A stretch of DNA of 42,898 bases from a virus: IMG/VR virus record IMGVR_UViG_3300021962_000213, positions 1 through 42,898 of that record; one strand, 5' to 3'. Under the pieces are notes generated by a model. It worked only from the letters and a program-made list of their open reading frames with translations. It had not been told where the DNA came from and searched no databases. Both the position numbers and the translations under genes were made by a program. Below, one piece after another: positions 1 to 42,898 of this stretch (its first letter is position 1; the number at the start of each line of letters is the position of its first letter).

Positions 1-642
1 GAACTTCAATATGTAAAGATGAAAGAAGATTTCTATGGACAACTTGAACAATATAATCTTAATCCAGAATATTTTAAAGATAAGATAACACAGCTATTTA
101 AAAATGATGTTGATCCTGATAAGTTTGGTAGAAGATTAAACGTAGCATACAATACATTATTCCCACAGTTTGACGCAGTTAAAACATATTACGTAGAAAA
201 CTATCCAGGTATATTCCCTACTACAGAAGATATAACAGATGAAGCTATCTTTGCTAGCTTTATTGATGAGAATGTATCAGCAGATATTATTTCACAACGT
301 GTAGAAATATCACAAATAGGTGGTGCATTTAAAGAACAAGACTTTGCTATATCTAAAGAACAAGCACAAAGATTATTAAGTGCTGGTGTTACAGGAACTG
401 GCGCACAACAATTAGCTGCTAGAGCTGAAACACAACTAGGAAGATTGCAACGTATATCAAGTAGGTTTACTGGTAGAGAAGATATATTTGGATTATCAGA
501 ATTTATTGAGAGTGAAGTATTTGGAGAAGGTGTATCACAAAGATTAAGACAAAGACTTGAAGCAGAACAAGCTACAGCATTCACACGTGAAGGTGGTGCA
601 GCAGTTACACAAGCTGGTGTAACAGGACTTGTTGAAGCATAA
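1..642 (+). CDS. Internal virion protein, C-terminal part (5'-truncated copy)
   Basis: The reading frame is open from base 1, so this is the last 213 codons of a longer gene cut by the contig edge, not a gene starting at the ATG at 19. It matches residues 229-441 of the intact gene at 41455-42780 apart from one Ile/Val change. The segment is mostly helical, rich in Gln, Glu and Arg, with a Gly-Ala-rich C-terminus. It is probably an internal or ejected virion protein by position, and its exact function is unknown. On the closed molecule this copy and the right copy are the same gene. Confidence 0.85.
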   Translation, partial: ELQYVKMKEDFYGQLEQYNLNPEYFKDKITQLFKNDVDPDKFGRRLNVAYNTLFPQFDAVKTYYVENYPGIFPTTEDITDEAIFASFIDENVSADIISQRVEISQIGGAFKEQDFAISKEQAQRLLSAGVTGTGAQQLAARAETQLGRLQRISSRFTGREDIFGLSEFIESEVFGEGVSQRLRQRLEAEQATAFTREGGAAVTQAGVTGLVEA

Positions 643-760
643 TGCCTTTTGATAAATTCGATCACAAGAGAAAACCTTATTTAGAACGTCAACTTAAAAA
701 ACGTGAACGTAAAATGAAGTATTATAAATTTTACGTATTTATAGAAAAAGTTAAGCAACT
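1..760. repeat. Left copy of 760-bp terminal redundancy
   Basis: Positions 1-760 align without gaps to 42139-42898. I count 17 substitutions, at about 123, 147, 156, 211, 216, 267, 312, 330, 396, 399, 420, 436 and five more between 480 and 635. All lie in the 3' part of the last internal virion gene. Sixteen are silent and one (A/G at 211) changes Ile to Val. The downstream small ORF is identical in both copies. The contig probably overlaps itself, joined through two closely related strains. Confidence 0.95.
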
Positions 761-779
761 CATAAAATCTGTGCTATAA
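642..779 (+). CDS. Small basic protein (45 aa), unknown
   Basis: The ATG overlaps the stop of the preceding gene (TAATG). The 45-aa product begins MPFDKFDHKRKPYLERQLKK and is very rich in Lys and Arg in its first 30 residues, followed by a hydrophobic tail. The same sequence is found without a change at the right end (42780 onward), while the upstream gene carries 17 substitutions, which supports coding under constraint. It may bind nucleic acid by charge, but no family is recognised. Its last codons overlap an extended -10 promoter. Confidence 0.65.
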   Translation: MPFDKFDHKRKPYLERQLKKRERKMKYYKFYVFIEKVKQLIKSVL

Positions 780-780
780 T
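772..780 (+). promoter_or_regulatory. Extended -10 promoter for the capsid operon
   Basis: TGCTATAAT is a perfect extended -10 element lying across the stop codon of the small basic gene. A weak -35-like TTAAGC lies at 751-756. Transcription would start near 787 and run through a hairpin-rich leader into the scaffold and capsid genes. The identical nonamer recurs at 11479-11487. Confidence 0.6.
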
Positions 781-1424: not shown

Positions 1425-1456
1425 CAGAGAGAAATCTCGGAGAGGAATAACTAAAA

Positions 1457-2491
1457 ATGGCAGCAATAGCAGGTGCTAACCCAATAGTAGCTAGTGACGT
1501 TAATAACTTTACTGGCGAGTTGTTCAAAATTACTCCGCATAGAACTCCGTTACTTGCTGCTGCTGGAGGTTTAAATGGTGGAATTGTAACTAACACAACT
1601 TTTTTCCAATTCCAAAAACAAGACAATGCTACCGTTTCATCTGTATCACCAGATGACGAAGGCGGTCAACCAAACTACTCTGGAAGAAGCAGAGCAGCAC
1701 AACAAGGTGTGCTTCAAATCTTCCACGAAGCAGTACAAATCTCCTTCACAGCACAAGCAGCTAGTGGAGAAATCGTGCCGTTTAATTTAAGTGGCAACTA
1801 TAAAAATTCAGATCCAGCATTAGCGCTGGAAGGCAATAACGCAATAACAGATGAGCTTGCTTATCAAATGGAATTGTTACTTGAAACAGTAGCAAAGAAA
1901 GTTGAATGGGCAGCATTTAACGCTTCTTACAATGATGGTGTTGTAGGTAACCGTCAGATGAGAGGTCTTAAAGAACATCAAGATCTAGCTGGTGGAACAT
2001 CAGTTGATCACGTTAGTGCTGGTGCAGCACAAAAACTTAACTGGGAAATTATTGCAGACGCAATGAAAGCGTTATATGACGCTGGTGCGCCAATGAGACA
2101 ACCAGTACTTTTCGTGTCACCAACAATGTTATTGGATCTCAACAAAGAGCTTGTTAATGCAACAGTTGGATCAGTTAATTATGGTATTTTACCAAGAGAC
2201 AGAAGTGTCGGTGGTGTCAACATTGATACAATCGTAACTCCTTTTGGTCAAATCGGATTAGCTTTATCTGACTATCTACCAACAGGTAGCACAGCAGGAA
2301 AGCAAGCATTCATTGTTGACTTATCATTCGTTAAACCAGTATTCTTGAACATTCCAGGATACGGTACAATGTTTGTAAGAGACATTGATCAGCAAGATTA
2401 CGCAAGAATTGCTAAGGCAGTTTATATGGAAATGGCTTTTGACTTCGGTCCACAGCAATTCCATTGCCAAATCGATAACGTAATCGGTTAA
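1457..2491 (+). CDS. Major capsid protein (SU10/DUF5309-like, HK97 fold)
   Basis: This 344-aa protein resembles the SU10-type (DUF5309) major capsid family: N-terminal DVNNFTGELFKITPHRTPLL, a central long-helix region around ITDELAYQMELLLETVAKKVEW, and a C-terminal beta-rich part ending near FDFGPQQFHCQ. It would form the icosahedral shell. The gene follows the scaffold by 32 bases with a GGAGAGGAA ribosome site and is followed by a hairpin that may limit downstream transcription, as is common after capsid genes. Codon choice is slightly richer in C-ending codons than in its neighbours, as expected for a highly expressed protein. Confidence 0.85.
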   Translation: MAAIAGANPIVASDVNNFTGELFKITPHRTPLLAAAGGLNGGIVTNTTFFQFQKQDNATVSSVSPDDEGGQPNYSGRSRAAQQGVLQIFHEAVQISFTAQAASGEIVPFNLSGNYKNSDPALALEGNNAITDELAYQMELLLETVAKKVEWAAFNASYNDGVVGNRQMRGLKEHQDLAGGTSVDHVSAGAAQKLNWEIIADAMKALYDAGAPMRQPVLFVSPTMLLDLNKELVNATVGSVNYGILPRDRSVGGVNIDTIVTPFGQIGLALSDYLPTGSTAGKQAFIVDLSFVKPVFLNIPGYGTMFVRDIDQQDYARIAKAVYMEMAFDFGPQQFHCQIDNVIG

Positions 2492-7086: not shown

Positions 7087-7719
7087 ATGCCTTATGGTTA
7101 TCTAGGACAAAATCAACCTAATCAAACTGTTAATAATAGTGGTGTCTTTTCTATTACTGATGTAGCTGAACTTCAATCACAAGGAAAACTTGGTGGTAGC
7201 TTAGAACTTATTGCTGAACAAACTGCAAGTAGTGATAGTGCTATTGACTTTTTATCAATTCAAGAAGATGTTTATGATGTACATTTATTGCAAGTTAATA
7301 ATTATCAAGCAAATTCAGATAACACAATTTTAACTATAAAACTTTATGAAAGTGGTGTATTAGAAACAGGTAGTGTTTATCAATATGCAATACAGGGTGG
7401 TAGGTCTAATGGTACATTTTCAGAATACAAATCTACAGGAAGTAGTCTAGGTGTATCAATTATTGGTAGTGGAATAGATAATGCCTCAAATTCATCAGCA
7501 AATGGATATACCTATTTTTATAATTTAGGCAATAGTAGTAAGTACAGTTTTACAACATTTCAATGGAGTTATATATATTATCCTGTTACTGAAGATTATG
7601 AATTTAACTTTGGTGGGGGTGTTTTACCACAAGCAAGTTTAGTTAATGGATTTAGAGTTATTCCAAATGGTGGTACTTTTTCTGCAAATTTAAAACTCTA
7701 TGGAGTAAAACAACTATGA
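7087..7719 (+). CDS. Paralogous tail-tip/receptor-binding protein A
   Basis: The 210-aa first member of a duplicated three-gene cassette. It is a clear paralogue of the gene at 8766: both have an N-terminal GY.G..P.Q...N..GVF motif, then LELI, then YDVHLL/YNVHFI, and a C-terminal YNLGNSSKYSFTTFQWS against YNLGDSTKYSFTTFQSS. The protein is Ser/Asn/Gly-rich and beta-patterned, without cysteines. Likely role is host recognition at the tail tip, inferred from position and variability. The stop overlaps the next start as ATGA. Confidence 0.55.
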   Translation: MPYGYLGQNQPNQTVNNSGVFSITDVAELQSQGKLGGSLELIAEQTASSDSAIDFLSIQEDVYDVHLLQVNNYQANSDNTILTIKLYESGVLETGSVYQYAIQGGRSNGTFSEYKSTGSSLGVSIIGSGIDNASNSSANGYTYFYNLGNSSKYSFTTFQWSYIYYPVTEDYEFNFGGGVLPQASLVNGFRVIPNGGTFSANLKLYGVKQL

Positions 7720-8255
7720 GTGCTTTAAGATTAATTAATGAAACTGAAGTAGCTAGTGGTGTTACAACAGTAAATATAACTGATTTATTTTCAGCAGATT
7801 TTGATATTTACCAAATTGAATTTTCAGGTATTTATCAAAGCACAAATGTATCTAATGGTATTGAGGGATTGAGATTAATTAATGCTAGTGGAAGTGTTAT
7901 TACTGCAAGTGAATATTCTTATGCAAACTTAAATATGCCTAGTGGAAGTGCTTTTGCTGAAAATAGATTTACAACAAGAGATTTTATATTTTTTAACTTA
8001 TATGCAGACCAACTTGGCGAGGGTAATGCAAATGCAAGTATGTATATTTTTAATCCTAATAATAGTTCAAGTTATACTTTTTTAATTTCACAAGCTAATG
8101 GACAAACTTCAACTGATATGTATGCAGGAAAAACTATTGGTGTTCATTTAGTTGCAACACAAATTAAAGGTATTCAATTATATGAAAGTACTGCACTAAA
8201 TACTTTTGGTGGTGGCTTTATAAGAACTTATGGACTAAGGGTAGATAATGGGTAA
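7716..8255 (+). CDS. Paralogous tail-tip/receptor-binding protein B
   Basis: A 179-aa beta-rich protein paralogous to the gene at 9419: the two share S.......V.ITDLF/VTDCF, FDIYQIEFSG/YDVYYISATK and IFNPNNSSSYTF/IFNPYDSSSYTF at matching positions. It also shares the core (YxxNxxxSSxYxF) with cassette members A and C, so all six genes probably descend from one ancestral fold. It overlaps A by four bases and C by eight. Likely part of a hetero-oligomeric tail-tip recognition complex. Confidence 0.55.
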   Translation: MSALRLINETEVASGVTTVNITDLFSADFDIYQIEFSGIYQSTNVSNGIEGLRLINASGSVITASEYSYANLNMPSGSAFAENRFTTRDFIFFNLYADQLGEGNANASMYIFNPNNSSSYTFLISQANGQTSTDMYAGKTIGVHLVATQIKGIQLYESTALNTFGGGFIRTYGLRVDNG

Positions 8256-8763
8256 ATTAGTACAAGTAGCAACAAATACAGTTAGTAGTCCAACTGCTAG
8301 TGTTACCTTAACAGGCATAGATAGTGATGATGTTTATATGGTTACTATTGTTGGTGCTAGTCCAAGTAGTGGTAGTGATGAAATAAGAATTAGAGTTACT
8401 AAAGATGTAGCAGGAACACCAACACCACAAACAACTGCTAATTATGATTGGGCAGATAAATTTTTAAGAGCAAGTGCAGCTTTTATAAATGATTACAATA
8501 CTAATCAAACTTCTACCAGAGGAACAGGAAATATTGATAATGCTTTAAATGGTGGTAATGGAATTTTTTATTTATATAACTTTAACAATTCAAGTGAATA
8601 TAGTTTTATTACAATAGAAAGTGTTACTTATGGTTTTAGTGAGGGTAGAGGTTATCAGGGTGGAACAGTTTATACAGTAGCAGAGGCACATAATGGAGTT
8701 TATTTTTTTCCTTCAACAGGAAATATAGATAGTGGAACATTTACTTTATATAAGGTGGTATAA
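8248..8763 (+). CDS. Paralogous tail-tip/receptor-binding protein C
   Basis: A 171-aa protein paralogous to the gene at 9928. Both open with a basic start (MGKLVQVATN/MAGSLIKIDE) and then share ASVTLTGID, DVYMV and TTANYDWADK/TTANYDYAAK, followed by FNNSSEYSFITIES/ANNSGEYTFITIED. It is the last gene of the first cassette. Beta-patterned, rich in Ser, Gly and Asn. No enzymatic motif. Role as above, inferred. Confidence 0.55.
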   Translation: MGKLVQVATNTVSSPTASVTLTGIDSDDVYMVTIVGASPSSGSDEIRIRVTKDVAGTPTPQTTANYDWADKFLRASAAFINDYNTNQTSTRGTGNIDNALNGGNGIFYLYNFNNSSEYSFITIESVTYGFSEGRGYQGGTVYTVAEAHNGVYFFPSTGNIDSGTFTLYKVV

Positions 8764-8765
8764 CA

Positions 8766-9419
8766 ATGGCAGATGATTTGAAATATGGATATAAAGGTGC
8801 AGAGCCAACACAAAGTTTTGGTAATAATACAGGTGTGTTTGATCCAAATGATATTAATAACCTTATAGCAAATAATCAATGGACTACTTTTGGACAATTA
8901 GAATTAATTGAAACTAAAGATATTACTGTTATGACTGCAAATATAGATTTTACAGATATAAAAGAAAATATTTATAATGTACATTTTATTACTGCAAATG
9001 ATGTTACTTCAAATACAACAGGCAGACATATGGTAAAGCAATTTTCAACTGATGGTGGTAGCACTTTTGTTTCAAGTGGTTATCAATATGCTCAACAATA
9101 TGGTACAGGTGCAGGAAGTTTTGGGGAAACTAAAAGTACATCAGCAAGTTTTTTAGGATATTGGACAGCAAGTATTAGCCCATTGAGTAACCAAACTGCA
9201 CAAGCATATTCATATTTTTATAATTTAGGGGATAGCACAAAATATTCTTTTACTACTTTTCAAAGTTCAGCTTGGTATAGCACAGGACCAAATTACCAAA
9301 TGATTTTTGGAAGTGCAGTTTATCCAAGTGCAAATGTAGTAAATGCAATTAGATTAAAGTCAGATAGCACTTCAAGTTTTACAGGTCAATTTTCTCTATA
9401 TGGAATAAGGTACTCCTAA
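8766..9419 (+). CDS. Paralogous tail-tip/receptor-binding protein A'
   Basis: A 217-aa protein that begins the second cassette and matches gene A (7087) along its length, with a slightly longer N-terminus. DNA similarity is low enough that the copies look old rather than a recent duplication: shared protein motifs lie in otherwise diverged sequence. It starts two bases after gene C. Same inferred role in host recognition. Confidence 0.55.
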   Translation: MADDLKYGYKGAEPTQSFGNNTGVFDPNDINNLIANNQWTTFGQLELIETKDITVMTANIDFTDIKENIYNVHFITANDVTSNTTGRHMVKQFSTDGGSTFVSSGYQYAQQYGTGAGSFGETKSTSASFLGYWTASISPLSNQTAQAYSYFYNLGDSTKYSFTTFQSSAWYSTGPNYQMIFGSAVYPSANVVNAIRLKSDSTSSFTGQFSLYGIRYS

Positions 9420-9928
9420 TGGCTACTAATCTTCAATTCATTAAATCAGCTAGTGGAACTTCTGTTAGTTCATTATCAGTAACAGATTGCTTTAGTGATA
9501 AGTATGATGTGTATTACATTTCTGCTACAAAGATTGATATTGCAACTGCTTATTATAACAATATAAGAGTTATTAATTCTAGTGGTGTTGATAGTGGTGC
9601 AAATTATGATTATGCACAATTACAAATGGCAAGTTATACAACTTTTTCTGAACTTAGAAGCACTACTGCAACATCTTGGTTTTATTCAAGTTGGCAAAGT
9701 GCTAATGCAAGTGATGGTGTTGGTTTAGGAGTTTATATATTTAATCCTTATGATAGTTCAAGCTATACATTTATGACACATCAATCTAGTGGTTTTAATA
9801 GTGGTAGTGGTATGTTAGGTTTTAAAGGTATTGGTGTTCATCACATAGCAGAACAAATAACAGGTATTAATATAACTAGCCCATATAATTATGACAATAT
9901 AACAGTTAATGTATATGGAGTTAAATAA
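9419..9928 (+). CDS. Paralogous tail-tip/receptor-binding protein B'
   Basis: A 169-aa paralogue of gene B (7716), coupled by TAATG to A' and to C'. It contains YDVYYISATK, NYDYAQLQMASYTTFSELRS and FNPYDSSSYTFMTHQSSG. Unlike most of the family it has one cysteine near the N-terminus (VTDCFSDKYD). Its size and position mirror B within the first cassette. Confidence 0.55.
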   Translation: MATNLQFIKSASGTSVSSLSVTDCFSDKYDVYYISATKIDIATAYYNNIRVINSSGVDSGANYDYAQLQMASYTTFSELRSTTATSWFYSSWQSANASDGVGLGVYIFNPYDSSSYTFMTHQSSGFNSGSGMLGFKGIGVHHIAEQITGINITSPYNYDNITVNVYGVK

Positions 9929-10449
9929 TGGCAGGTAGCTTAATAAAAATAGATGAAGAAATAGTTACATCAGCAGTAGCAAGTGTAACTTTAACAGGTA
10001 TTGATAGCACTTATGATGTCTATATGGTTAAGTATAATAATGTAACACCAGATACTGATGTTGTTGCTTTAAGGGGTAGAGTAACAGAAAGTAGTACACC
10101 AAATACAACTGCAAATTATGATTATGCAGCAAAATTATTAAGGTCAACAACTTCCTTTTATAATTCATCTAGCACAAATCAAACAAGTTATCTTATTAAT
10201 CAAGATACAACAGGAACAGGAACAGGGGAACAAACAAATGGTATTAATTACATTTTTAATGCTAATAATAGTGGGGAATACACTTTCATTACTATAGAGG
10301 ATAGTTTTTTAGAACATAATGGAAATCTAGAAGGAAGTGCTGGTGGTGGTGTTTTTACAAGTGCTAGTTCAGTAAATGGAATACAATATTTTTTTTCAAG
10401 TGGAAATATAGCTAGTGGAACATTTACTTTATATGGTTTAAAGAAGTAA
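9928..10449 (+). CDS. Paralogous tail-tip/receptor-binding protein C'
   Basis: A 173-aa paralogue of gene C (8248) and the last of the six related genes. Shared landmarks are ASVTLTGID, YDVYMVKYNNV, TANYDYAAKLLR and NNSGEYTFITIED. It ends 34 bases before the next gene, so the tail-tip block closes here. Confidence 0.55.
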   Translation: MAGSLIKIDEEIVTSAVASVTLTGIDSTYDVYMVKYNNVTPDTDVVALRGRVTESSTPNTTANYDYAAKLLRSTTSFYNSSSTNQTSYLINQDTTGTGTGEQTNGINYIFNANNSGEYTFITIEDSFLEHNGNLEGSAGGGVFTSASSVNGIQYFFSSGNIASGTFTLYGLKK

Positions 10450-10789: not shown

Positions 10790-11062
10790 TTGACACAGTT
10801 ACAAGATATGCGTGAACACGCCTTAGAGCGTGCTAACTATAAATGCGAATGGGCAGACTGCGACAATACACACATACGATTAGAGATGGCACATCTCGTT
10901 GGTATTGGTATGGGCGGTAGAAATAAAGATACTAAGTACGACATAAATAATGTTGCTATGCTGTGCAAACAACACCATGATATTTATGATGGACGCATAC
11001 AATCACTTGCAAAAAAAGAATATAGAAAACTTTTAACTGCTTATTTAAACTTATCAAGATAA
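10790..11062 (+). CDS. HNH endonuclease
   Basis: A 90-aa protein with the HNH (beta-beta-alpha metal) signature: YKCEWADC supplies two Cys of a zinc site, LEMAHLVGIGMGGRN supplies the first catalytic His, then an Asn-containing segment (INNVAMLC) and CKQHHDIYDG with the second His pair. The start could be TTG at 10790 or ATG at 10808; the domain is complete with either. In many phages a short HNH protein works with terminase in DNA packaging, but here it lies with tail and lysis genes, far from terminase, so a free-standing homing or degradative nuclease is also possible. Confidence 0.8.
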   Translation: MTQLQDMREHALERANYKCEWADCDNTHIRLEMAHLVGIGMGGRNKDTKYDINNVAMLCKQHHDIYDGRIQSLAKKEYRKLLTAYLNLSR

Positions 11063-12115: not shown

Positions 12116-12197
12116 AATATGTGTAGCAGATGACGGTTCATTCGTAAGAATATGTAACTGTGAGTATGGAGATATAAACTGTGAATGTGATAACTAG
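12108..12197 (+). CDS. Cys-rich mini-protein (29 aa)
   Basis: The ORF begins MCKICVADDGSFVRICNCEY and ends CECDN: six cysteines in 29 residues, arranged CxxC, CxC, CxC. Very similar Cys-rich peptides appear in aquatic phages to my recollection. The ATG is preceded by AAGGAAGAAG, a good ribosome site inside the upstream ORF. It probably binds zinc. It overlaps the amidase start. Confidence 0.55.
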   Translation: MCKICVADDGSFVRICNCEYGDINCECDN

Positions 12198-12798
12198 GAA
12201 TATGTGGGGTGCTAAACCTAACAAGACAAAGTTTAGTAAGCTAGGAGAAGTTAAAGGTTTAGTGGTACACTGGTCTGCTTATCCTACTGCTGTAGGTAAT
12301 CAAGCAGAGATAGACCAAGTTAAGAAGATACAAGAGTTACATCAAGTTGATAGAGGTTGGAACGACATAGCGTATAATTTTTTAGTAGGAGATACAGGAC
12401 AAATTTATGAAGGCAGAGGTTGGGGAAACAGAAGTGCTGCACAAGGTGGCAATAGTAGGGAAGAAATTAACTTTAATAACAAGCATTATGTTGCTGTGTG
12501 TTGGTTGGGTGGTATCAATCCTACCGACAAACCATCAGCTAAAGCTATTGAAAGTGTTAAGTGGATCTACGAACAAGTCGGTGGAGAACTAAGACCTCAC
12601 TCATCATTTAAACAAACTGATTGTCCAGGAGATAGTTGGCGACAACACATACTAGAAGGTTTAGTTACAAATACAATTAGTAATGACAGTCCACCTGATA
12701 TGATTATACCTAATGCCTTTCATAAAAAACTTGATACCATTATTGCTAAACTAGAAAACATAGAAAACAAATTAAAACTAGGAAGGATCATACAATGA
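12181..12798 (+). CDS. Endolysin: N-acetylmuramoyl-L-alanine amidase (Amidase_2)
   Basis: A 205-aa GTG-initiated protein with the zinc amidase fold of T7 lysozyme and PGRPs. Zinc ligands are H30 (GLVVHWSA), H140 (RPHSSF) and C148 (TDCPGD), with K144 in the place of the T7 catalytic lysine. GWNDIAYNFLVGDTGQIYEG is the family core. It cleaves the bond between MurNAc and L-Ala of peptidoglycan at lysis. The C-terminal 40 residues form a helix and contain no obvious cell-wall-binding domain. No signal peptide, so release needs the holin four bases downstream (overlap). The GTG is chosen for the GGAG at 12168 and the conserved N-terminus. Confidence 0.9.
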   Translation: MNVITRNMWGAKPNKTKFSKLGEVKGLVVHWSAYPTAVGNQAEIDQVKKIQELHQVDRGWNDIAYNFLVGDTGQIYEGRGWGNRSAAQGGNSREEINFNNKHYVAVCWLGGINPTDKPSAKAIESVKWIYEQVGGELRPHSSFKQTDCPGDSWRQHILEGLVTNTISNDSPPDMIIPNAFHKKLDTIIAKLENIENKLKLGRIIQ

Positions 12799-13014: not shown

Positions 13015-14187
13015 ATGCCTAAGAAAACTAAAGACGAATGGGGTAATAATTTCTATAAGTCTGGGTGGCAACCTGGAATTGAGATTAACGAACAGAATGG
13101 TCAAGGTGAACTGACACACGTTGGAACTGATCCAAACTACCATAATAAGTTTGATGAAATTCTGCGTGGTTGGGGGTATGATCCTGAACATTATGAAATA
13201 GAAGGTACAGTACGTTCATCTAGCTGGGAAGTACAGCTTAAAGGTGGTAGGACTGAAACCTTTTACGCATTTAAAGGACTTGTTAAGAAGAAGTCTCGTG
13301 GTCACGATAAATATTTTAAAGAATTATTTAAGCAAGCTAAAAGAAAACCACCAGTAAAAACTAAAACACACGGTGGTGATACTGCATTCTTATTCTTCAT
13401 GGCAGACTGGCAGCTAGGTAAAAAAGATTACGGTGTAGAAAACACTATCAAAAGATATGATGTAGCATTACAAGACGCAGTTAATCGTATCAAAGAACTA
13501 CGCAAGATAGGTGTAGAGATAGATGAGATATACATGATAGGATTAGGTGACCTCACAGAAAATTGTTCACAATCATATTACTCGTCAATGCCGTTCAATG
13601 TCGAACTCACACTTATTGAGCAATACGCATTAGCTAGGTCAATGATAATGAAAACAATAGATACATTCTTACCACTAGCAGATAAGTTAGTACTAGCTGG
13701 CGCACCAGGTAATCACGGTGAAACTACACGTGCTGGTAAAGGTCAAGTCTTAACCAGTAGATTAGATAACTCTGATACTATGCACCTACAAATCTGTGAA
13801 GAAATTATGAATGCTAATCCAGAACGTTACGGCAAAGTAAAAGTAGAAGTACCTGATGGATTTCATCAAGTCATGGACATCAAAGGTATTACTTGTGGTT
13901 GGACACATGGTCACATGAGTAGTGGCAGTGGCAACGCAGAAGCAAAGATAGAGAGTTGGTGGAAGGGACAGATGTATGGTTTTCTACCAGCAGGTGAATG
14001 TCAGATCTTAATTACTGGTCACTATCATCATTTCAGAAGTAAACAACAAGGAGATCGTACTTGGTTTCAATCTCCATCATTAGATAAATCAATAGACTTT
14101 ACTGCACGTAGCGGTATGTGGTCTCACCCTGGAGTGTTAACGTTTACAGTTAATGCTAAAGGTTGGGATAATCTAAAGATCCTTTAA
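13015..14187 (+). CDS. Calcineurin-like metallophosphoesterase (DNA-directed?)
   Basis: A 390-aa protein with all motifs of the superfamily: D131-x-Q133 (MADWQLG), D179 (GLGDL), N233-H234 (GNHGE), H298/H300 (WTHGH) and H336/H338 (GHYHH). The N-terminal 120 residues contain a separate region rich in charged and aromatic residues (EGTVRSSSWEVQLKGG). In actinobacterial phages this type is often annotated as a nuclease or SbcD/Mre11-like phosphoesterase. Here it may process DNA ends or nucleotides; the substrate cannot be told. A GGAGG ribosome site precedes the ATG, and a strong terminator follows directly. Confidence 0.85.
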   Translation: MPKKTKDEWGNNFYKSGWQPGIEINEQNGQGELTHVGTDPNYHNKFDEILRGWGYDPEHYEIEGTVRSSSWEVQLKGGRTETFYAFKGLVKKKSRGHDKYFKELFKQAKRKPPVKTKTHGGDTAFLFFMADWQLGKKDYGVENTIKRYDVALQDAVNRIKELRKIGVEIDEIYMIGLGDLTENCSQSYYSSMPFNVELTLIEQYALARSMIMKTIDTFLPLADKLVLAGAPGNHGETTRAGKGQVLTSRLDNSDTMHLQICEEIMNANPERYGKVKVEVPDGFHQVMDIKGITCGWTHGHMSSGSGNAEAKIESWWKGQMYGFLPAGECQILITGHYHHFRSKQQGDRTWFQSPSLDKSIDFTARSGMWSHPGVLTFTVNAKGWDNLKIL

Positions 14188-16605: not shown

Positions 16606-17105
16606 TGGACAAACTTTGGGAAAGGATATATAGTAAGAGTATGGATACTATATTGAAATCACAAGGTGCTAAGAATGTATGGGACTTGTTTAAAGATTGC
16701 AATGATTTATTAGAAGCTATTACTGACGCAAGAGAGATAGAAGAAGATAACATTATACCATTCTTTCCTAACGGTACATGCGAAGATAGCAGTTTGATGA
16801 AACAACTAGCAGAATATGAACCAGACTTTCCAATGAAATCTTGTCCGCATTATGGTGGTGTAACAATAGGTATCGTCACACTTAAAGGTCCAGGCGAAGT
16901 CAAAGTCGTGCATGATACGAACGATTTGTTTTCTTATAGCTACACACAACGTGGTGTGCAATTAGATTACGGAAGAATGTATAGAGCAGAGATGATCTTG
17001 TATCTATCTGGAGTAGCAGACATTCTTAATTCGCCAAAGGCATTAAAAGAACGGAAGTTATTTTTAAAAGATGAGCAAGCAAAAACAACAGGGAACGAAA
17101 CTTGA
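16605..17105 (+). CDS. Unknown protein (166 aa)
   Basis: The ATG overlaps the preceding stop (TAATG). Residues 1-50 are helical (FKDCNDLLEAITDAREIEED), and residues 60-140 are mixed with Cys at 59 and 80. A conserved-looking turn is HYGGVTIGIVTLKGPGEVKV. No known motif recognised. It overlaps the nuclease gene by 35 bases, so the two are probably co-translated. Confidence 0.55.
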   Translation: MDKLWERIYSKSMDTILKSQGAKNVWDLFKDCNDLLEAITDAREIEEDNIIPFFPNGTCEDSSLMKQLAEYEPDFPMKSCPHYGGVTIGIVTLKGPGEVKVVHDTNDLFSYSYTQRGVQLDYGRMYRAEMILYLSGVADILNSPKALKERKLFLKDEQAKTTGNET

Positions 17106-17460
17106 AACTTATGTAGCACGCATGCTTAACGGTGAGCGTATTGCAGAAGGTGGAAGTAAAGATAAAGGTGACGTAAAGTTTAAATGGAATGGACTAGACT
17201 TTTACGTTGAGTGTAAGGCAAGACAATCATTAAATGTCACACGTGAATTAGCTAAGTCTATATCGAAGTCAAAGTCGAGCTTGACAGCACTGGTTTGGAA
17301 ACGATTAGTTCAAACTGGAAAACATAAAAGACAACCAGACGGAGTACCGATAATAGTATGTCTAACACTGGATACATTTATAGATATTGTTGATGGAAAA
17401 ATTGATAATGATTTTTACAGTGATCCATTTTGGAAGGAATTACCAGGATCAAAAAAATAG
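17071..17460 (+). CDS. PD-(D/E)XK nuclease, Holliday-junction-resolvase-like
   Basis: A 129-aa protein with the fold's ordered residues: Glu in GTKLETYVARML (helix 1), Asp in DKGDVKFKW and the E-x-K of FYVECKAR, a classic Hjc/VRR-Nuc-like arrangement. The segment after it (KSISKSKSSLTALVWKRLV) is Lys/Ser-rich and could touch DNA. It would cleave branched DNA before packaging or degrade host DNA. The neighbouring annealing-like protein fits a recombination role. Family subtype is uncertain. Confidence 0.7.
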   Translation: MSKQKQQGTKLETYVARMLNGERIAEGGSKDKGDVKFKWNGLDFYVECKARQSLNVTRELAKSISKSKSSLTALVWKRLVQTGKHKRQPDGVPIIVCLTLDTFIDIVDGKIDNDFYSDPFWKELPGSKK

Positions 17461-20186: not shown

Positions 20187-20792
20187 TTGGAAACAAAAAC
20201 AAATAAAGACAGTATCAATGTAGCAATACAATGTTTAGCTTGCTATAACATGGGTAAGCTAACGTTCTACTGGAAATCATTTACAAAAAATACAACGCTA
20301 GATGAAATTTATAATTCATTAAACGTTCAAACTATTCACACCAAAGCAAAAGTTCCTTACTTGTGTAATGGTGATGAATACATGATTGCAGATTATGAGA
20401 ATATCAAAGTTGATGAGTTTGCACACGGAATAGAAATATTCAAACTTGTTGAGCTACTTAATGATGTAGAAGATACAGATTACATAAACGCATACTTACA
20501 AATAAATCATATACAATATTTAGACCGTGAGAGTTCTAGCTGGACAGAATTCAAAGACAACGTTCAAGTATTTAATTGGTTAAGTGACGCTGAAGATTAT
20601 GCAGAAGAATTTGTAAAGGAAGCTCACGGGTTCTATGAAATAGAAGATAATTTTTTTGCTCATTGGATAAGTTGGGATAGTCTAAAAGAATATATTTTGG
20701 ATACATGGTTTTGGTGCGTTGAAATAGACTTAGGATATAAGGACGAAAAAAACTTTAACCAAAGCCGTTATTTTGTATGGAGTAGAGACTAA
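20187..20792 (+). CDS. ArdA-like antirestriction protein
   Basis: A 201-aa acidic protein with the ArdA outline. The N-terminal domain reads INVAIQCLACYNMGKLTFYW (family pattern V..L..YN.G.L.G.W), then LDEIYNSL and EYMIADYENI (family E..I.DYEG). The C-terminal domain contains SDAEDYAEEFVKEAHGFYEI and HWISWDSLKEYIL, where the family has a D.e.A.e.....GxY and YIDWE.~A stretch. ArdA mimics B-form DNA and blocks type I restriction enzymes. The start is TTG after AAGGAG. It opens its own operon with a near-consensus promoter, fitting immediate expression after DNA entry. Some family residues differ (for example G after DYE), so the homology is likely but distant. Confidence 0.7.
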   Translation: METKTNKDSINVAIQCLACYNMGKLTFYWKSFTKNTTLDEIYNSLNVQTIHTKAKVPYLCNGDEYMIADYENIKVDEFAHGIEIFKLVELLNDVEDTDYINAYLQINHIQYLDRESSSWTEFKDNVQVFNWLSDAEDYAEEFVKEAHGFYEIEDNFFAHWISWDSLKEYILDTWFWCVEIDLGYKDEKNFNQSRYFVWSRD

Positions 20793-22495: not shown

Positions 22496-22506
22496 AGTAG
22501 ACAGTA

Positions 22507-22534: not shown

Positions 22535-22539
22535 TATTT

Positions 22540-22704: not shown

Positions 22705-22787
22705 TGCGGACGACTTATGCGGACCTGCTATGCCAACATGTATTACGACTTTATCTTATGGACCTGTTATAGGCAGGAAGTCCATAA
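22705..22787 (+). repeat. Repeat/hairpin block before the terminase promoter
   Basis: TGCGGAC occurs at 22705-22711 and 22718-22724. TTATGCGGACCTGCTATGCC (22715-22734) recurs in changed form as TTATGGACCTGTTATAGGC (22756-22774). The second copy forms a strong stem: TTATGGAC (22756-22763) with GTCCATAA (22780-22787) and an inner CTG/CAG. No T-run follows, so it is not a standard terminator. Confidence 0.6.
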
Positions 22788-22790
22788 TGT

Positions 22791-22820
22791 TTGTTCCGAT
22801 TTATTAATCTATGCTACACT
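22791..22820 (+). promoter_or_regulatory. Terminase/late promoter
   Basis: TTGTTC (22791-22796), an 18-base spacer, then TACACT (22815-22820) with an extended TGC. The start site would be near 22827, about seven bases before the terminase ATG, and there is no Shine-Dalgarno sequence, so the mRNA is nearly leaderless. Confidence 0.6.
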
Positions 22821-22828
22821 ATAGCATA
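22810..22828. promoter_or_regulatory. Operator-like dyad over the terminase -10
   Basis: TATGCTA (22810-22816) and TAGCATA (22822-22828) are exact inverted arms with a five-base spacer, placed over the -10 and start site. A bound dimer would block the promoter. No obvious free-standing repressor gene is present; the HTH in terminase itself is one candidate for the binder. Confidence 0.5.
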
Positions 22829-22833
22829 TAGAT

Positions 22834-24759
22834 ATGTCAAGTAAAGAAAAAATCACAATCTGCACAGCTTCTGACTGTGTTGTCCCCTTACCAGAAGGTA
22901 GGAAGAAATACTGTAGTGAGAAATGTGGCAACAGAGTAAAGAAAAGAGCATACAGAGCCAGGAAGTCTACCAGTGACATACAGGTCATTAAAGAGATTGA
23001 TCCACAGATACAGAAGCGTAGAGGTGATTATTACGCAGTAATGAAGAAAAAAAATTTTTTTAACGACATTCTAGAAGGTAAGAAAACAAAGAAGGAGATT
23101 GCAGACATTTTGAATTGCAGTCAGGCAACAGTGTCCAGAGCTATGGCAGCGTATGTTGAAGACATCACAAAGCAGGCAGAGTTTGAAAAGAAGCAGCGTG
23201 ATAAAGATGACGATAGCTTTGTAACGTATAACATATCTGTAGAAGATTTTATAAAATTTAGAGATGATTATTTTTTAACAGAGCAAGGTAAAAAATATGA
23301 GACACCAGAGTTTCAAAAAAAGTGGATTGAAGCTATAATAGAAAGCATACTGCACGGAAAAAGGTTGATGATCTTGTCTCCGCCACGACATGGTAAGACG
23401 GATTTGCTAACTCACTTTTGTGTGTATATGATATGTAAAAATCCTAACATTCGTGTAATGTGGGTTGGTGGTAACGAAGATATTGCAAAGAATGCTGTAG
23501 GTTCGGTACTAGACCATTTAGAAAACAACGAAGGACTTATTCAAGATTATGGAGATTGGGACGGATTTAGACCTACAAATCGCAGTGGAAAAAGCTGGTC
23601 GTCCAGTCAATTTACTGTTGCAACTAGAACAGTCTCTGGTATTAAGTCGCCAACTCTTGTCGCAATTGGAAAAGGAGGTAAGATCCTTTCCAGAGACGCA
23701 GACCTTATTATCGCAGACGACATTGAAGATCATGGAAGTACTGTGCAACCAAGTGCTAGAGAAAGCACCAGGAACTGGTGGACGACAACACTACAGTCAA
23801 GAAAAGAGGAACATACTGGAATGGTCGTCATTGGATCAAGACAGCACCCAGACGATCTTTACCATCATCTCTTAGAAAACCAGGCATGGGAAAGCATTGT
23901 AGAACGTGCGCACGATTTAGAAATACCTTTAGAAGATGAGACATTAGACCATACGCCACATTTGTTGTGGTCGAACAAACGTTCGCATAAGTGGTTATTA
24001 GAACAATTACATGCTGCTGAAACTACTGGTGGTAGAGCTATCTTTGAAATGGTATATCTTAATAAAGCAATACCAGACGGCATGTCATTATTTACAGCAG
24101 AGATGGTTGATAAATGTTTAGACAAATCACGTAAGCTAGGTGACGTGCCACCGCATACTACATTGATTGCAGGTTTAGATCCAGCAAGTACTGGATACCA
24201 AGCAGCAGTGCTTTGGGCATATAATGTAAAAACACAACAAGTCTGGTTAGTAGATTTAAAAAATGATCAAGGTGGTGGTATCGGTAAAGCATTAAAATTA
24301 ATGCAAGAATGGTATGACAAGTATTGGTTAAGTCATTGGGTAATTGAAGAAAATGGATTTCAAAGAGCTATAGGTCAAGATAAAGATATTAGAAATTGGG
24401 CAGCTAATCATGGTGTACGTATTGAAGGACATCAAACCTATAAAAACAAATGGGATCCAACATTTGGTGTTACTAGCATGGTTGGACAGTATGAAACAGA
24501 GAAAATAAATTTACCTTGGTCAGACGCAAAGACTAAGAATAAAGTAGGTATATTTAGACAACAACTGCTATACTTTAGTCAAGCAGGTGCTAGCAATAGT
24601 CGCAACGTTAAGACAAAAACTGACTTAGTAATGGCAAGTTGGTTTCCTATGAAGCGTATACGCACCAACGTAAAAATGATGTTGGCGTACACTCAAAACG
24701 ACTATACTCCTAGTTATGCAGACTTTAAAAGTACAGATTACAATGAGGTGCCTTGGTAA
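22834..24759 (+). CDS. terL: Terminase large subunit with N-terminal zinc finger and HTH
   Basis: A 641-aa packaging motor. Residues 10-31 carry four cysteines (C10, C15, C27, C31). Residues 86-105 form a helix-turn-helix (KKEIADILNCSQATVSRAMA). The ATPase domain follows: Walker A at 182-189 (SPPRHGKT) and Walker B LIIADD at 291-296 followed by Glu. The nuclease domain begins with D449 (AGLDPAST) and continues with VIEENGFQ. The usual large subunit lacks the N-terminal 120 residues; here they could replace a separate small subunit, which I do not find. Starts at an almost leaderless ATG and overlaps the portal gene by one base. Confidence 0.92.
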   Translation: MSSKEKITICTASDCVVPLPEGRKKYCSEKCGNRVKKRAYRARKSTSDIQVIKEIDPQIQKRRGDYYAVMKKKNFFNDILEGKKTKKEIADILNCSQATVSRAMAAYVEDITKQAEFEKKQRDKDDDSFVTYNISVEDFIKFRDDYFLTEQGKKYETPEFQKKWIEAIIESILHGKRLMILSPPRHGKTDLLTHFCVYMICKNPNIRVMWVGGNEDIAKNAVGSVLDHLENNEGLIQDYGDWDGFRPTNRSGKSWSSSQFTVATRTVSGIKSPTLVAIGKGGKILSRDADLIIADDIEDHGSTVQPSARESTRNWWTTTLQSRKEEHTGMVVIGSRQHPDDLYHHLLENQAWESIVERAHDLEIPLEDETLDHTPHLLWSNKRSHKWLLEQLHAAETTGGRAIFEMVYLNKAIPDGMSLFTAEMVDKCLDKSRKLGDVPPHTTLIAGLDPASTGYQAAVLWAYNVKTQQVWLVDLKNDQGGGIGKALKLMQEWYDKYWLSHWVIEENGFQRAIGQDKDIRNWAANHGVRIEGHQTYKNKWDPTFGVTSMVGQYETEKINLPWSDAKTKNKVGIFRQQLLYFSQAGASNSRNVKTKTDLVMASWFPMKRIRTNVKMMLAYTQNDYTPSYADFKSTDYNEVPW

Positions 24760-40214: not shown

Positions 40215-41455
40215 TGGCGTTAGTAAATTACTTACCAAAAGATACGCAAATAGTAGAAGAAGTTGACGCTAATGGTAAAAGTTCTTACTATCTTGTATAT
40301 TCATTAGCAAAAGATTTAGTATCAGAAGGTTTTACTTATAGATATAAAGTAGATGATTTAAAATCTATATCAGATACAACAGGAGTTGTTAAACCAGACG
40401 CAGTTATCAAGGTTGAAAATAATCAATATACTTTGTCATCAGGAACATTAAGTGGTATATCTGAAACAGATTATGCTAATAGTTTTTATTTTGGAACGTA
40501 TGGTCAATTAAGAACTGTATATGAACAGCTAGGTATAGACGCTGAAACTGGTGCAGATAGTTATGAGTATTTAATAGAAGCATTAAATAGAGAAGCTGAA
40601 ACAAAACCATGGATATTATCTACTGACGCAAAAGGAAGATATGATTATTTAGCTGTAGTATTAGAAGCAGCACTTGAAGGTAGAACTGCAAGAGAGAGTG
40701 ATTTTCAAAAGACAACATGGTGGAAAACACATAACGCTACAGAACGTCAACAAATAAAAGATCAAGCAACTGATCCTAAAACTTGGGAAAAAAATCAAAG
40801 AACTATTAGAGATAGTATTATGACACAAATGATTGCAGCAGGTGTACAAAGTTATCCTACTGCTGTCATAGATAAGTTAGTTCAAAAGTATGGTACAGGA
40901 GAATATACAGACGCTGATGTAAGTAATGTAATTTTAAAGTTAGCTAATCCAAGACTTAGATATGAATTAGATACAGAAATACAAGGTGCTTTAGCTGGTC
41001 AAACATTAGATGTTATTGAAAGTACAAAACAAATTAAAGATACAATAGACGCAGCTATGGGACCTGGTGCTTCACAATATTATAATTTAGAAGATATTGC
41101 TAATGAACGTCAAGCTAACCCACAATGGTATAACGAAGTATTTTTACCAGGACTAGCAGAACAATTCCAAACTAAATATACACAGTATGCAGGAACTAAT
41201 GTTAAGAGATACGAAGACGCTGCACCAGAGTATAGGTATGAATGGGAAGCAATCACTGGACAAAAAGCAAATGAAACCAGTGCTACATGGAAGAAGTTTA
41301 TGGCTACTAATGATGTTAAAGAGAGAGAAGATATAGCATTTGAAGAAGCAGCTAGACTAGGAACACAGACTTATAGAGATAGAGTAAAAGCAGATTTAAC
41401 TAAAGCATTTGGTCAAGCAGGTCAAAGAGCAACAGGCGGAGGTAGGTATCAATAA
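40214..41455 (+). CDS. Internal virion protein (413 aa)
   Basis: TAATG-coupled on both sides. The N-terminal 120 residues are beta-rich (EEVDANGKSSYYLVYSLAKD), then helical. The segment DFQKTTWWKTHNATERQQIK followed by TDPKTW (about 159-190) is a motif I recognise from internal proteins of aquatic phages (T.WW....ATxR......DP). C-terminal Gly/Arg-rich tail. It probably forms part of the ejected core. Confidence 0.65.
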   Translation: MALVNYLPKDTQIVEEVDANGKSSYYLVYSLAKDLVSEGFTYRYKVDDLKSISDTTGVVKPDAVIKVENNQYTLSSGTLSGISETDYANSFYFGTYGQLRTVYEQLGIDAETGADSYEYLIEALNREAETKPWILSTDAKGRYDYLAVVLEAALEGRTARESDFQKTTWWKTHNATERQQIKDQATDPKTWEKNQRTIRDSIMTQMIAAGVQSYPTAVIDKLVQKYGTGEYTDADVSNVILKLANPRLRYELDTEIQGALAGQTLDVIESTKQIKDTIDAAMGPGASQYYNLEDIANERQANPQWYNEVFLPGLAEQFQTKYTQYAGTNVKRYEDAAPEYRYEWEAITGQKANETSATWKKFMATNDVKEREDIAFEEAARLGTQTYRDRVKADLTKAFGQAGQRATGGGRYQ

Positions 41456-42780
41456 TGGCAGGTAGAATAAGTATCTTTGATAGATTGGCACAACAGTTAT
41501 ACGGTCCTACATTTCTTCCAGAAGATATGCCTACAGAAGAAAAAGTACAAAAATCATCAGGTCCTTCTGCTGTAGCTGCTGGACCTACTACACCATTGTA
41601 TGTAGATGATAGACCAGCAGAAGAAGTAGTACCGCCAGTAATAATTGAAGAACCAGACGGTAAAAAAATTGAAGGTGGTAAAGTAACTGGTGGCGTAGAA
41701 GTTGTTAAAACTAAATATAAGATTGTTGGTAACCCACCAAACTATTCAGTTGTAGAAGCAGAAGATGGAACTTACTCTAGTCAAGCAGCAGCACAAGCAG
41801 ACGCTACTAGATTAAATAATGAATGGTTAGCTAACAATCAACCTGGCGGTGAGGAACCACCAGCACCTGCTGGCGCACCACAACCTCCATCATTTCCAAG
41901 TACTACAGTAGAAGCTGGTGAACCAGTTGAAAGATTTAATAGTAGAACATTTGCAGAAGAAAGTTATCCATGGTTAAGAGGTGAATTACTTGAAACATTC
42001 TTAGCTGTCTATGATACTAATGGTGGTGACGCAGTAGAAGCATTAGATAGTTTAAGAAAAACAGAATTGTATAAAACAGAGTTTCCTGGAATATTTAGAG
42101 AAGATGGAAAGACATTACGATTTGAAGGTGCGCAACCAGAACTTCAATATGTAAAGATGAAAGAAGATTTCTATGGACAACTTGAACAATATAATCTTAA
42201 TCCAGAATATTTTAAAGATAAGATAACACAGCTATTTAAAAATGATGTTGATCCTGATAAATTTGGTAGAAGATTAAACGTAGCTTACAATACTTTATTC
42301 CCACAGTTTGACGCAGTTAAAACATATTACGTAGAAAACTATCCAGGTGTATTTCCTACTACAGAAGATATAACAGATGAAGCTATCTTTGCTAGCTTTA
42401 TTGACGAGAATGTATCAGCAGATATTATTTCACAACGTGTAGAAATATCTCAAATAGGTGGTGCATTCAAAGAACAAGACTTTGCTATATCTAAAGAACA
42501 AGCACAAAGATTATTAAGTGCTGGTGTTACAGGTACAGGCGCACAACAATTAGCTGCAAGAGCTGAAACACAATTAGGAAGATTGCAACGTATATCAAGT
42601 AGGTTTACTGGTAGAGAAGATATATTTGGATTATCAGAGTTTATTGAGAGTGAAGTATTTGGTGAAGGTGTATCACAAAGATTAAGACAAAGACTTGAAG
42701 CAGAGCAAGCTACAGCATTCACACGTGAAGGTGGTGCAGCAGTAACACAAGCTGGTGTAACAGGACTTGTAGAAGCATAA
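41455..42780 (+). CDS. Internal virion protein, intact copy (441 aa)
   Basis: Full-length form of the gene truncated at the left contig edge. N-terminal 150 residues are Pro/Glu/Val-rich and probably flexible, with a repeat-like AEDGTYSSQAAAQADATRLN segment. Then AEESYPWLRGELLETFLAVY, the opening of a helical body that runs to residue 441. The last 213 residues are those in the left copy, with Val for Ile in NYPGVFPTT. It is the last gene before the small basic ORF and the capsid promoter, closing the internal-protein block. Confidence 0.7.
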   Translation: MAGRISIFDRLAQQLYGPTFLPEDMPTEEKVQKSSGPSAVAAGPTTPLYVDDRPAEEVVPPVIIEEPDGKKIEGGKVTGGVEVVKTKYKIVGNPPNYSVVEAEDGTYSSQAAAQADATRLNNEWLANNQPGGEEPPAPAGAPQPPSFPSTTVEAGEPVERFNSRTFAEESYPWLRGELLETFLAVYDTNGGDAVEALDSLRKTELYKTEFPGIFREDGKTLRFEGAQPELQYVKMKEDFYGQLEQYNLNPEYFKDKITQLFKNDVDPDKFGRRLNVAYNTLFPQFDAVKTYYVENYPGVFPTTEDITDEAIFASFIDENVSADIISQRVEISQIGGAFKEQDFAISKEQAQRLLSAGVTGTGAQQLAARAETQLGRLQRISSRFTGREDIFGLSEFIESEVFGEGVSQRLRQRLEAEQATAFTREGGAAVTQAGVTGLVEA

Positions 42781-42898
42781 TGCCTTTTGATAAATTCGAT
42801 CACAAGAGAAAACCTTATTTAGAACGTCAACTTAAAAAACGTGAACGTAAAATGAAGTATTATAAATTTTACGTATTTATAGAAAAAGTTAAGCAACT
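42139..42898. repeat. Right copy of the 760-bp terminal redundancy
   Basis: Aligns gap-free to 1-760 with the 17 substitutions listed for the left copy. If the two ends are one locus, the unit genome is 42138 bp. Confidence 0.95.
42780..42898 (+). CDS. Small basic protein, 3'-truncated copy
   Basis: First 39 codons of the 45-aa ORF at 642-779, identical in sequence, cut by the contig end. Start overlaps the preceding stop (TAATG). Confidence 0.65.
   Translation, partial: MPFDKFDHKRKPYLERQLKKRERKMKYYKFYVFIEKVKQ

What the first reader, a model, noticed from the sequence alone, without database searches (positions are those of the whole stretch)
1..42898. GANTC appears to be completely absent from the genome
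Reading all lines for GAATC, GACTC, GAGTC and GATTC I found none. Base composition alone predicts roughly 130. The effect is visible in codon choice: every Glu-Ser and Asp-Ser pair I checked (about 40, for example in TerL, portal, both giants and the tail genes) uses AGT or AGC, never TCN, although TCA and TCT are common serine codons elsewhere. GANTC is the HinfI-type restriction site and the CcrM methylation site of alphaproteobacteria. Such full depletion points to strong, long-lasting selection, either by restriction or by methylation-dependent regulation, and gives a host clue independent of gene content.
Basis: partly seen in the sequence, partly recalled or inferred. Interest (0 to 1): 0.75.

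Follow-up and report, generated by a model that had tools for sequence, protein, structure and literature searches.

The report
Phage genome emptied of GANTC sites
This aquatic bacterial virus has lost every copy of the short DNA word GANTC, and of over a dozen other short words, most likely because enzymes in its hosts cut viral DNA at those words; this is an unusually extensive case of a known evasion strategy.

Summary
The 42,898-base phage record has 0 GANTC; a null that keeps proteins and codon usage predicts about 66 (minimum 48 in 1,000 shuffles), not 130. All 76 GAN-Ser codon pairs counted use AGY.

The trait belongs to a lineage. Of 80 terminase relatives fetched, 18 have none, 3 have few (0.04-0.37 of expectation) and 59 have 0.74-1.64. 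The terminase tree needs at least three switches.

GANTC is only the largest of about 20 erased words in the window: 14 at zero on both strands (including CTYRAG, CTGCAG, AAGCTT, GGATG, GGAGC, CTCTTC) and 6 at 10% or less. Sister phages lack other sets (GAAGA 0/108, CCNNGG, GTSAC). Codon-shuffled copies show almost no such zeros.

Best explanation: elimination of restriction sites, largely by synonymous change where residues are conserved, under host Type II restriction. The enzymes were not found.

The CcrM/alphaproteobacterial reading is not supported: phages of three alphaproteobacteria keep 0.6-0.7 of expected GANTC, and five of six window proteins tested have mostly actinophage relatives, all distant; the sixth had none. 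The two relatives binned with bacteria disagree (Actinomycetota, Rhodobacteraceae), so the host is unresolved.

The parts
1..42898 (.). Whole phage record without any GANTC. Also zero on both strands: GGATG, GGAGC, GACCC, CAGCC, CGATG, CTCTTC, CTYRAG, CCGG, GGCC, GWGCWC, CTGCAG, AAGCTT, ATGCAT.
20187..20792 (+). ArdA-like antirestriction gene (201 aa, TTG start), a candidate DNA-mimic inhibitor of Type I restriction; a second, protein-based counter to restriction in the same genome
   Evidence: PF07275 E=1.6e-9, 39 bits against a cut-off of 27; matches at E<=0.001 in 8 of 22 virus records searched, the window included
22834..24759 (+). Terminase large subunit, used as the marker for the tree on which GANTC loss was mapped
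   Evidence: phrog_38 E=3.9e-66; tree
1457..2491 (+). Major head protein, distant relative of actinophage capsid proteins (lineage clue)
   Evidence: phrog_1328 E=5e-34; 25 phage records, of which 13 Mycobacterium and 8 Propionibacterium
13015..14187 (+). Mre11/SbcD-like exonuclease; 96% identical in L008 but 32-37% in the seven GANTC-containing records where it was found, so apparently exchanged in the window's clade
   Evidence: phrog_284 E=4.1e-58
12181..12798 (+). Amidase endolysin, closest to Streptomyces phage endolysins (lineage clue)
   Evidence: PF01510; 82 of 89 matching phage records are Streptomyces phages
10790..11062 (+). Small HNH-like ORF (named by eye from its cysteines and histidines), considered and rejected as a phage-encoded GANTC nuclease
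   Evidence: Translation; no match in the 14 other records compared, including GANTC-free L008

Best explanation
The phage lineage has erased GANTC because hosts that it regularly meets carry a Type II (HinfI-type) restriction enzyme cutting unmethylated GANTC. Each site lost raises survival of incoming DNA, so selection removes sites, by synonymous changes where the protein is conserved, until none is left and then keeps the genome at zero. GANTC is one entry of a list of about 20 erased words in this genome, palindromic (CTYRAG, CTGCAG, AAGCTT, CCGG, GGCC, GWGCWC, ATGCAT) and asymmetric (GCATC, GGATG, GGAGC, GACCC, CAGCC, CGATG, CTCTTC), as expected if the hosts collectively carry many Type II and IIS systems. 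When hosts or their enzymes change, entries are dropped and added. Shown: the absences, their dependence on lineage, replacement at conserved residues, and absence of three methyltransferase families from the phages searched. Inferred: that the agent is restriction, and that the enzymes belong to the host.
For: 0 GANTC against about 66. 18 of 80 terminase relatives have zero, 3 more have 0.04-0.37 of expectation, and 59 have 0.74-1.64, so a fixed mutational or structural bias of this phage kind is ruled out. In L012 against its GANTC-normal sister L065 (14 genes, 77% aa identity) 0 of 32 aligned GANTC sites survive, 18 of them with unchanged amino acids and 11 of those by a single base, while 19/46 GTNAC, 15/35 TCNGA and 39/68 GATC survive. 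Erased words are enriched for palindromes: 2/15 against 0/120 for 4-mers, 1/16 against 0/120 for XYNZW words, 5/27 against 26/1263 for 6-mers. Codon-shuffled copies give 0.05 zero 5-mers per genome against 6.6 observed over 19 genomes. Sister genomes lack different words, often all-or-none: CCAGC 65/55 in the window but 0/43 in L065; CTGCAG 0/17 in the window but 28/21 in L065; GAAGA 0/108 in L073 only among the 14 records. Methyltransferases: PF01555 0 of 39 relatives and absent from the window; PF00145 and PF02086 0 of 22 virus records, window included. An ArdA-like gene is present.
Against: No host and no GANTC-cutting enzyme was identified. Several erased words (GGAGC, GACCC, CAGCC, CGATG, CTSAG) match no restriction specificity that I recall, so restriction is inferred for them by analogy. 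The published survey finds elimination at only 7.1% of Type II sites, so about 20 in one genome is far above that norm, and other agents could contribute. Many relatives are fragments, so a methyltransferase could lie outside them; a more distant relative (the contig of L083, 51% terminase identity) does carry a PF01555 gene, and that phage has normal GANTC (69/58) but no GATC. Other methyltransferase families were not searched.
Confidence: 0.85

Rival explanations
1. Methylation-dependent regulation: the host is an alphaproteobacterium whose CcrM methylates GANTC, and the phage avoids the word to stay out of the cell-cycle circuit.
For: GANTC is the CcrM site. One relative, L082 (80% terminase identity), was binned in a Rhodobacteraceae MAG, of which five sampled contigs show GANTC at 181/278 of expectation. 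The three reference phages of alphaproteobacteria show mild depletion.
Against: Those phages keep 0.6-0.7 of expected sites rather than none. L082 itself has 41 GANTC against 33.7 expected. About 19 other words are erased or nearly so too. A Paracoccus virome paper describes a group of methyltransferases of viruses of Alphaproteobacteria that target GANTC (PMC6536676, one passage seen), the opposite strategy.
Confidence: 0.05
2. The phage itself encodes a GANTC-cutting nuclease that degrades host or rival DNA, and protects itself by having no sites.
For: The window holds an HNH-like ORF (10790-11062), a nuclease-looking ORF (17071-17460; both named by eye) and an Mre11-like exonuclease that seems exchanged in the GANTC-free clade.
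Against: The HNH-like ORF is absent from GANTC-free L008, and the 17071 ORF is shared with GANTC-normal phages. The only ORF found in all five GANTC-free records compared and in none of the ten others at that cut-off (22696-22824) is unlikely to be a gene: relatives have in-frame stops and it lies in conserved non-coding DNA, with weaker matches in GANTC-normal phages too. One nuclease cannot explain 20 words. L012 and L016 are half-genome fragments, so the test is incomplete.
Confidence: 0.04
3. Compositional or codon-usage artefact, or chance.
For: The genome is AT-rich (34% GC), so GANTC is moderately rare.
Against: Five nulls predict 66-92 sites, with minima of 46 and 48 in the two simulated ones. 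Sister phages of similar GC and gene content have near-normal counts.
Confidence: 0.005
4. Restriction avoidance is real, but GANTC was erased in a deep common ancestor and several sister lineages later regained sites when pressure lifted, rather than several lineages erasing it separately. (A variant of the best explanation, not exclusive with it.)
For: Between GANTC-normal lineages L043, L065, L036 and L040, GANTC sites in conserved residues are shared rarely: ranks 7/238, 5/240, 27/221, 3/241, 14/209 and 42/241 from the bottom. In five other pairs (L046-L028, L036-L028, L028-L029, L040-L041, L049-L074) sharing is ordinary: ranks 165/238, 157/243, 166/248, 140/250 and 179/241.
Against: Two further pairs do not fit neatly: L020-L065 (close, rank 47/252) and L073-L074 (deep, rank 39/207). 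Counts are small (6-14 of 25-37 sites, each shared site counted from both sides); AGNCT and CTNAG are also poorly shared in several pairs; L065 has full GANTC. The tree cannot tell one loss plus regains from separate losses.
Confidence: 0.35

Closest known systems
Restriction-site avoidance/elimination in prokaryotic viruses (Rusinov et al. 2018, PMC6286503; abstract and passages seen)
   Same: Complete removal of short recognition words, in dsDNA phages. Elimination is defined there as a compositional bias below 0.1; GANTC at 0 would meet any such ratio, though my nulls are not their measure.
   Different: About 20 words at or near zero in one 43-kb genome, asymmetric ones included; sets switch between phages with roughly 80-90% identical terminase. 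Rusinov's matched host R-M data are lacking here.
GATC depletion in phage T7 and Puniceispirillum phage HMO-2011
   Same: The same pipeline recovers CGATC 2/69 and GATCC 1/59 in T7, and GATC 0/132 in HMO-2011; same kind of pattern.
   Different: T7 has 2 absent 5-mers at the 3% cut where the window has 12. HMO-2011 (9, first 50 kb) and HTVC010P (8) come close to the window in extent.
HinfI-type GANTC restriction-modification systems
   Same: Would cut exactly the word that is missing.
   Different: No such gene was seen in the phage, and no host genome with one was found.
CcrM/GANTC methylation of Alphaproteobacteria and phage-borne GANTC methyltransferases (PMC6536676, one passage seen)
   Same: Same word.
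   Different: The three phages of such hosts tested carry GANTC sites, and some such phages encode GANTC methyltransferases; here PF01555 is absent from the window and 39 relatives.

Membership tests
Restriction-site elimination by a phage (Type II avoidance) | Observed/expected below 0.1 with an expectation above 15 | tested here: met
   GANTC 0 of about 66-92; own nulls, not Rusinov's measure
Restriction-site elimination by a phage (Type II avoidance) | Not explained by protein sequence and codon usage | tested here: met
   1,000 codon permutations, minimum 48
Restriction-site elimination by a phage (Type II avoidance) | Lineage-specific, relatives keep the site | tested here: met
   59 of 80 loci at 0.74-1.64 of expectation; on fuller records L046 and L023 fall to 0.50
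Restriction-site elimination by a phage (Type II avoidance) | Host carries a restriction system with this specificity | not testable with these tools
   Host unknown; the two MAG bins conflict
CcrM-linked avoidance in an alphaproteobacterial phage | Host is an alphaproteobacterium | tested here: inconclusive
   One relative in a Rhodobacteraceae MAG, one in an Actinomycetota MAG; protein relatives mostly actinophage
CcrM-linked avoidance in an alphaproteobacterial phage | Other phages of such hosts eliminate GANTC | tested here: not met
   phiCbK (first 50 kb) 73/102, HTVC010P 47/76, HMO-2011 (first 50 kb) 86/137; 10 of the 80 HTVC010P relatives were examined and have 14-30 sites each
Self-protected phage (own GANTC methyltransferase) | Phage encodes a GANTC methyltransferase | tested here: not met
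   PF01555 absent from the window and 0 of 39 relatives; PF00145 and PF02086 0 of 22 virus records; in the window only an unrelated NIPY string in a giant ORF. Many relatives are fragments; other families not searched

The most novel reading that the evidence does not exclude
Each lineage of this uncultured aquatic phage family carries a heritable barcode of erased words, palindromic and asymmetric alike, that records the restriction enzymes of its recent hosts. The barcode turns over faster than the terminase diverges: the window's clade lacks GANTC and CTGCAG, which its sisters have, and has CCAGC, which most of them lack. It could be read backwards to infer host restriction repertoires and host switches from phage sequence alone, including specificities not yet described.
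Probability: 0.45. Interest if true: 0.7.

Novelty: new member of a known kind. Interest (0 to 1): 0.55.

Why it matters
The close pairs (GANTC-free against GANTC-normal phages with roughly 80-90% identical terminase) make it possible to watch restriction pressure come and go: how fast sites are erased, whether synonymously, whether recombination brings them back, and whether they regrow when pressure lifts. If the lists of missing words reflect host enzymes, they give a host clue for phages without CRISPR or prophage links, and predict enzyme specificities to look for in candidate hosts.

Tried and rejected
Rejected: composition or chance. A phage-encoded GANTC nuclease. A phage-borne methyltransferase of three families. 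The 42-aa ORF at 22696-22824 as a GANTC-linked gene: relatives have in-frame stops and the roughly 500-base stretch is conserved DNA; its last 274 bases show no unusual RNA fold (z 0.77), and the window has no Rfam match at gathering scores. The CcrM explanation, by controls.

Led nowhere: megablast of the window's second half against phages (no match); tblastn of the 41455-42780 protein (no match); WhiB as an actinophage marker (0 of 22 virus records); search of 396 Actinomycetota genomes with the terminase alignment: 33 have a match at E<=0.001, but those above 600 bits are only in G041, the MAG that holds L083; the next best has 108 bits. G041 carries two related phage contigs, C30 (the contig of L083) and C36. 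C36 and the L083 part of C30 lack GATC (0/122 and 0/50) but have near-normal GANTC (81/101 and 69/58), so they show avoidance but not this one. A PF01555 methyltransferase was found in 55 of 59 relatives of G041 searched; specificity unknown, not pursued. Literature: seven searches (listings of titles and starts of abstracts only) showed no paper on GANTC-free phages of this family; the library lacks most subscription journals.

Weak points: the words were chosen after scans, so their counts are not independent tests; the shuffled control is the guard. Pelagiphages and HMO-2011 also lack several words, so extensive erasure is not unique to this family: 15 control genomes or contigs average 2.5 zero 5-mers per 4,500 codons (4,000 for L144, L180 and L186) against 6.6 here, and HTVC010P (7) and HMO-2011 (9) reach or exceed the family mean. 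Asymmetric words dominate the 5-mer list, so palindromes are enriched but not the rule.
Full report
What was checked. The window is a whole virus record, an AT-rich phage genome with near-identical ends (1-300 and 42139-42438, 98%). GANTC occurs 0 times. Markov models of order 1, 2 and 3 and the maximal-order model predict 92, 87, 66 and 66. Permuting synonymous codons across 40 ORFs while keeping every protein predicts 66.5 +/- 6.2, minimum 48 in 1,000 runs. All 76 GAN-Ser pairs in those ORFs use AGY although 428 of 787 serine codons are TCN.

A property of a lineage, not of the phage kind. A scan of IMG/VR with the terminase found 480 relatives, of which the best 80 were returned. In those loci 18 have no GANTC (L001-L012, L014-L016, L018, L066, L076; some are short, with about 8 expected), L017 and L075 have 1 each, L013 has 6 against 16.3, and the other 59 have 0.74 to 1.64 of expectation. 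On the 22 fuller records fetched L016 has 2, L017 1 and L075 5; L046 and L023 fall to 0.50; the other GANTC-containing ones lie at 0.80-1.45. On a terminase tree of 83 rows, with 2 or fewer sites per record counted as free, one clade of 12, including the window, is wholly free (0 in every row). A second clade of 13 holds eight free rows (L016 with 2 sites and L017 with 1 among them), two with a few sites (L013, L075) and three with full counts (L020, L021, L065). At least three changes of state are needed.

How sites were lost. Comparing aligned codons of GANTC-free L012 with GANTC-normal L065 (14 genes, 77% aa identity), none of 32 GANTC sites survives; 18 keep the same amino acids and 11 of those differ by one base. 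In the same comparison 19 of 46 GTNAC, 15 of 35 TCNGA, 11 of 22 AGNCT and 39 of 68 GATC sites survive. Some exceptions look imported: two of the five GANTC in L075 lie in a stretch of about 820 bases closest to GANTC-containing L021 and L065 (86% and 83%), two more lie in the next 270 bases, which match nothing held, and the fifth lies in DNA 99% identical to L015 and L016. One of the two in L016 lies in a segment closest to L046 (86%), the other in one closest to GANTC-free L012 at only 73%. L013's terminase region, with four sites, is closest to GANTC-free L012 (91%), so there sites were gained, or not yet erased, in place. Between GANTC-normal lineages L043, L065, L036 and L040, GANTC sites in conserved residues are shared rarely (ranks 3-42 of 209-241 words in six pairs), while five other pairs rank 140-179 of 238-250 and two (L020-L065, L073-L074) rank 47/252 and 39/207. 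This hints that a common ancestor was poor in GANTC and that sites regrew; counts are small.

GANTC is one entry of a list. With the same kind of codon null the window also lacks, on both strands of the whole record, GGATG, GGAGC, GACCC, CAGCC, CGATG, CTCTTC, CTYRAG, CCGG, GGCC, GWGCWC, CTGCAG, AAGCTT and ATGCAT, and nearly lacks GCATC, CTSAG, CGNCG, CATATG, CAATTG and AGSCT (expectations 13-66). GATC, ACGT, AGCT, GTNAC and TCNGA are near expectation. Sister phages have other lists: CCNNGG 0 in eight of the 14 records, GTSAC 0 in L049 and L073, CCTTC 0-1 in L049 and L074, GGTGA 0/40 in L016, and GAAGA 0/108, CCATC 0/58, ACTGG 0/47 and GAATG 0/46 in L073. CCAGC is at full count in the three window-clade records (65/55, 54/44, 63/45), 27/38 in L074, but 0-1 in the other ten. 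Some words are intermediate in some phages (for example GGAGC 5/26 and GAAAG 9/65 in L036), so not every switch is all-or-none. Several of these are recognition words of known Type II or IIS enzymes (recalled, not from a call: HinfI, SmlI, PstI, HindIII, FokI, SfaNI, EarI, MboII, BccI, HphI, Tsp45I, BsaJI).

Controls. Codon-shuffled copies of 19 family members show on average 0.05 zero 5-mers per 4,500 codons; the real ones show 6.6 (range 2-10). Fifteen control genomes or contigs average 2.5: phi11, Mendokysei and phiCbK have none, T7 one, KHP30 two, seven HTVC010P relatives 0-5, C36 three, HTVC010P seven, HMO-2011 nine. The method recovers GATC depletion in T7 and finds GATC 0/132 in HMO-2011. 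Palindromes are over-represented among erased words (2/15 against 0/120 for 4-mers). So the pattern is not a product of the null; but two of the marine phages tested show a comparable extent, so it may not be special to this family.

Mechanism. Selection by host Type II restriction fits: absolute zeros, synonymous escape at conserved residues, palindromic excess, lineage-specific lists, no methyltransferase of three families in the phages searched, and an ArdA-like gene, a family known to act on Type I enzymes (recalled). The enzyme and the host remain unidentified, so this step is inferred. A phage-encoded nuclease was tested by gene presence and does not fit. CcrM-linked regulation does not fit: three phages of alphaproteobacteria keep 0.6-0.7 of expected GANTC, and the relative in an alphaproteobacterial bin, L082, has 41 against 33.7 expected.

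Host. Terminase, capsid, exonuclease, endolysin and a tail-region protein have as their main phage relatives those of Streptomyces, Mycobacterium and Propionibacterium, at 22-32% identity in the rows listed; the terminase also matches five Bacillus phages. A sixth protein had no match. These are distant, and actinophages are heavily represented in the collection (recalled). No WhiB gene was found in 22 virus records. Two relatives lie in MAGs: L083 (51% terminase identity) in an Actinomycetota bin of 1.1 Mb, and L082 (80%) in a Rhodobacteraceae bin. Sampled contigs of the Actinomycetota bin are closer to the window in GC (0.339 against 0.338) and codon usage (distance 0.174) than those of the Rhodobacteraceae bin (0.392 and 0.266), but the unrelated pelagiphage HTVC010P is closer still in codon usage (0.111), so composition is weak evidence. 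I leave the host open, leaning to Actinobacteria.

Literature. Rusinov et al. 2018 (PMC6286503; [quoted passage not shown] The kind of phenomenon is therefore known; what stands out here is the number of words in one genome and the switching between close relatives.

Noticed in passing
window 22300-22833: About 500 bases upstream of the terminase gene carry no convincing gene but are conserved: 88-97% in other window-clade contigs (L001 identical), 72-83% over parts in nearer sisters, only short matches in deeper relatives. No Rfam match and no unusual RNA fold in the part folded. Could be a packaging or replication site.
   Followed up: partly
window 1-300 and 42139-42438: The ends of the record repeat each other at 98%, not 100%, suggesting an assembly of a circular or terminally redundant genome from a mixed population.
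   Followed up: partly
window 7087-10449: Six consecutive genes of 169-217 aa, several sharing repeat motifs (61-83% over 60-66 bases), like an array of duplicated tail or fibre proteins; weakly matched (32-51%) in L043, L036, L049 and L074.
   Followed up: no
window 13015-14187 and 12181-12798: Exonuclease (96%) and endolysin (66%) are shared with L008, while seven GANTC-containing records have a 32-37% exonuclease, and none of the other 13 records shows a match to the endolysin: perhaps a cassette exchanged in the GANTC-free clade.
   Followed up: partly
L083 and G041:C36 (L229-L231): Two related phages binned with a 1.1-Mb Actinomycetota genome lack GATC entirely (0/50 and 0/122) while ten bacterial contigs of that bin show 343/434; C36 repeats its start after 43.8 kb, and C30, the contig of L083, carries a PF01555 methyltransferase twice, 43.9 kb apart.
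   Followed up: partly
L242-L251: A PF01555 methyltransferase of about 280 aa recurs in small-genome relatives of G041 (55 of 59 relatives of all sizes have some PF01555 match), without a neighbour that I could recognise as a restriction gene: possibly a solitary housekeeping methyltransferase.
   Followed up: no
L137 and relatives L169, L218, L178, L180, L186, L201, L221: HTVC010P and 7 of its 10 relatives examined lack ACGG and/or GCCC (e.g. ACGG 0/45 in HTVC010P), another unexplained list of missing words in marine phages.
   Followed up: no
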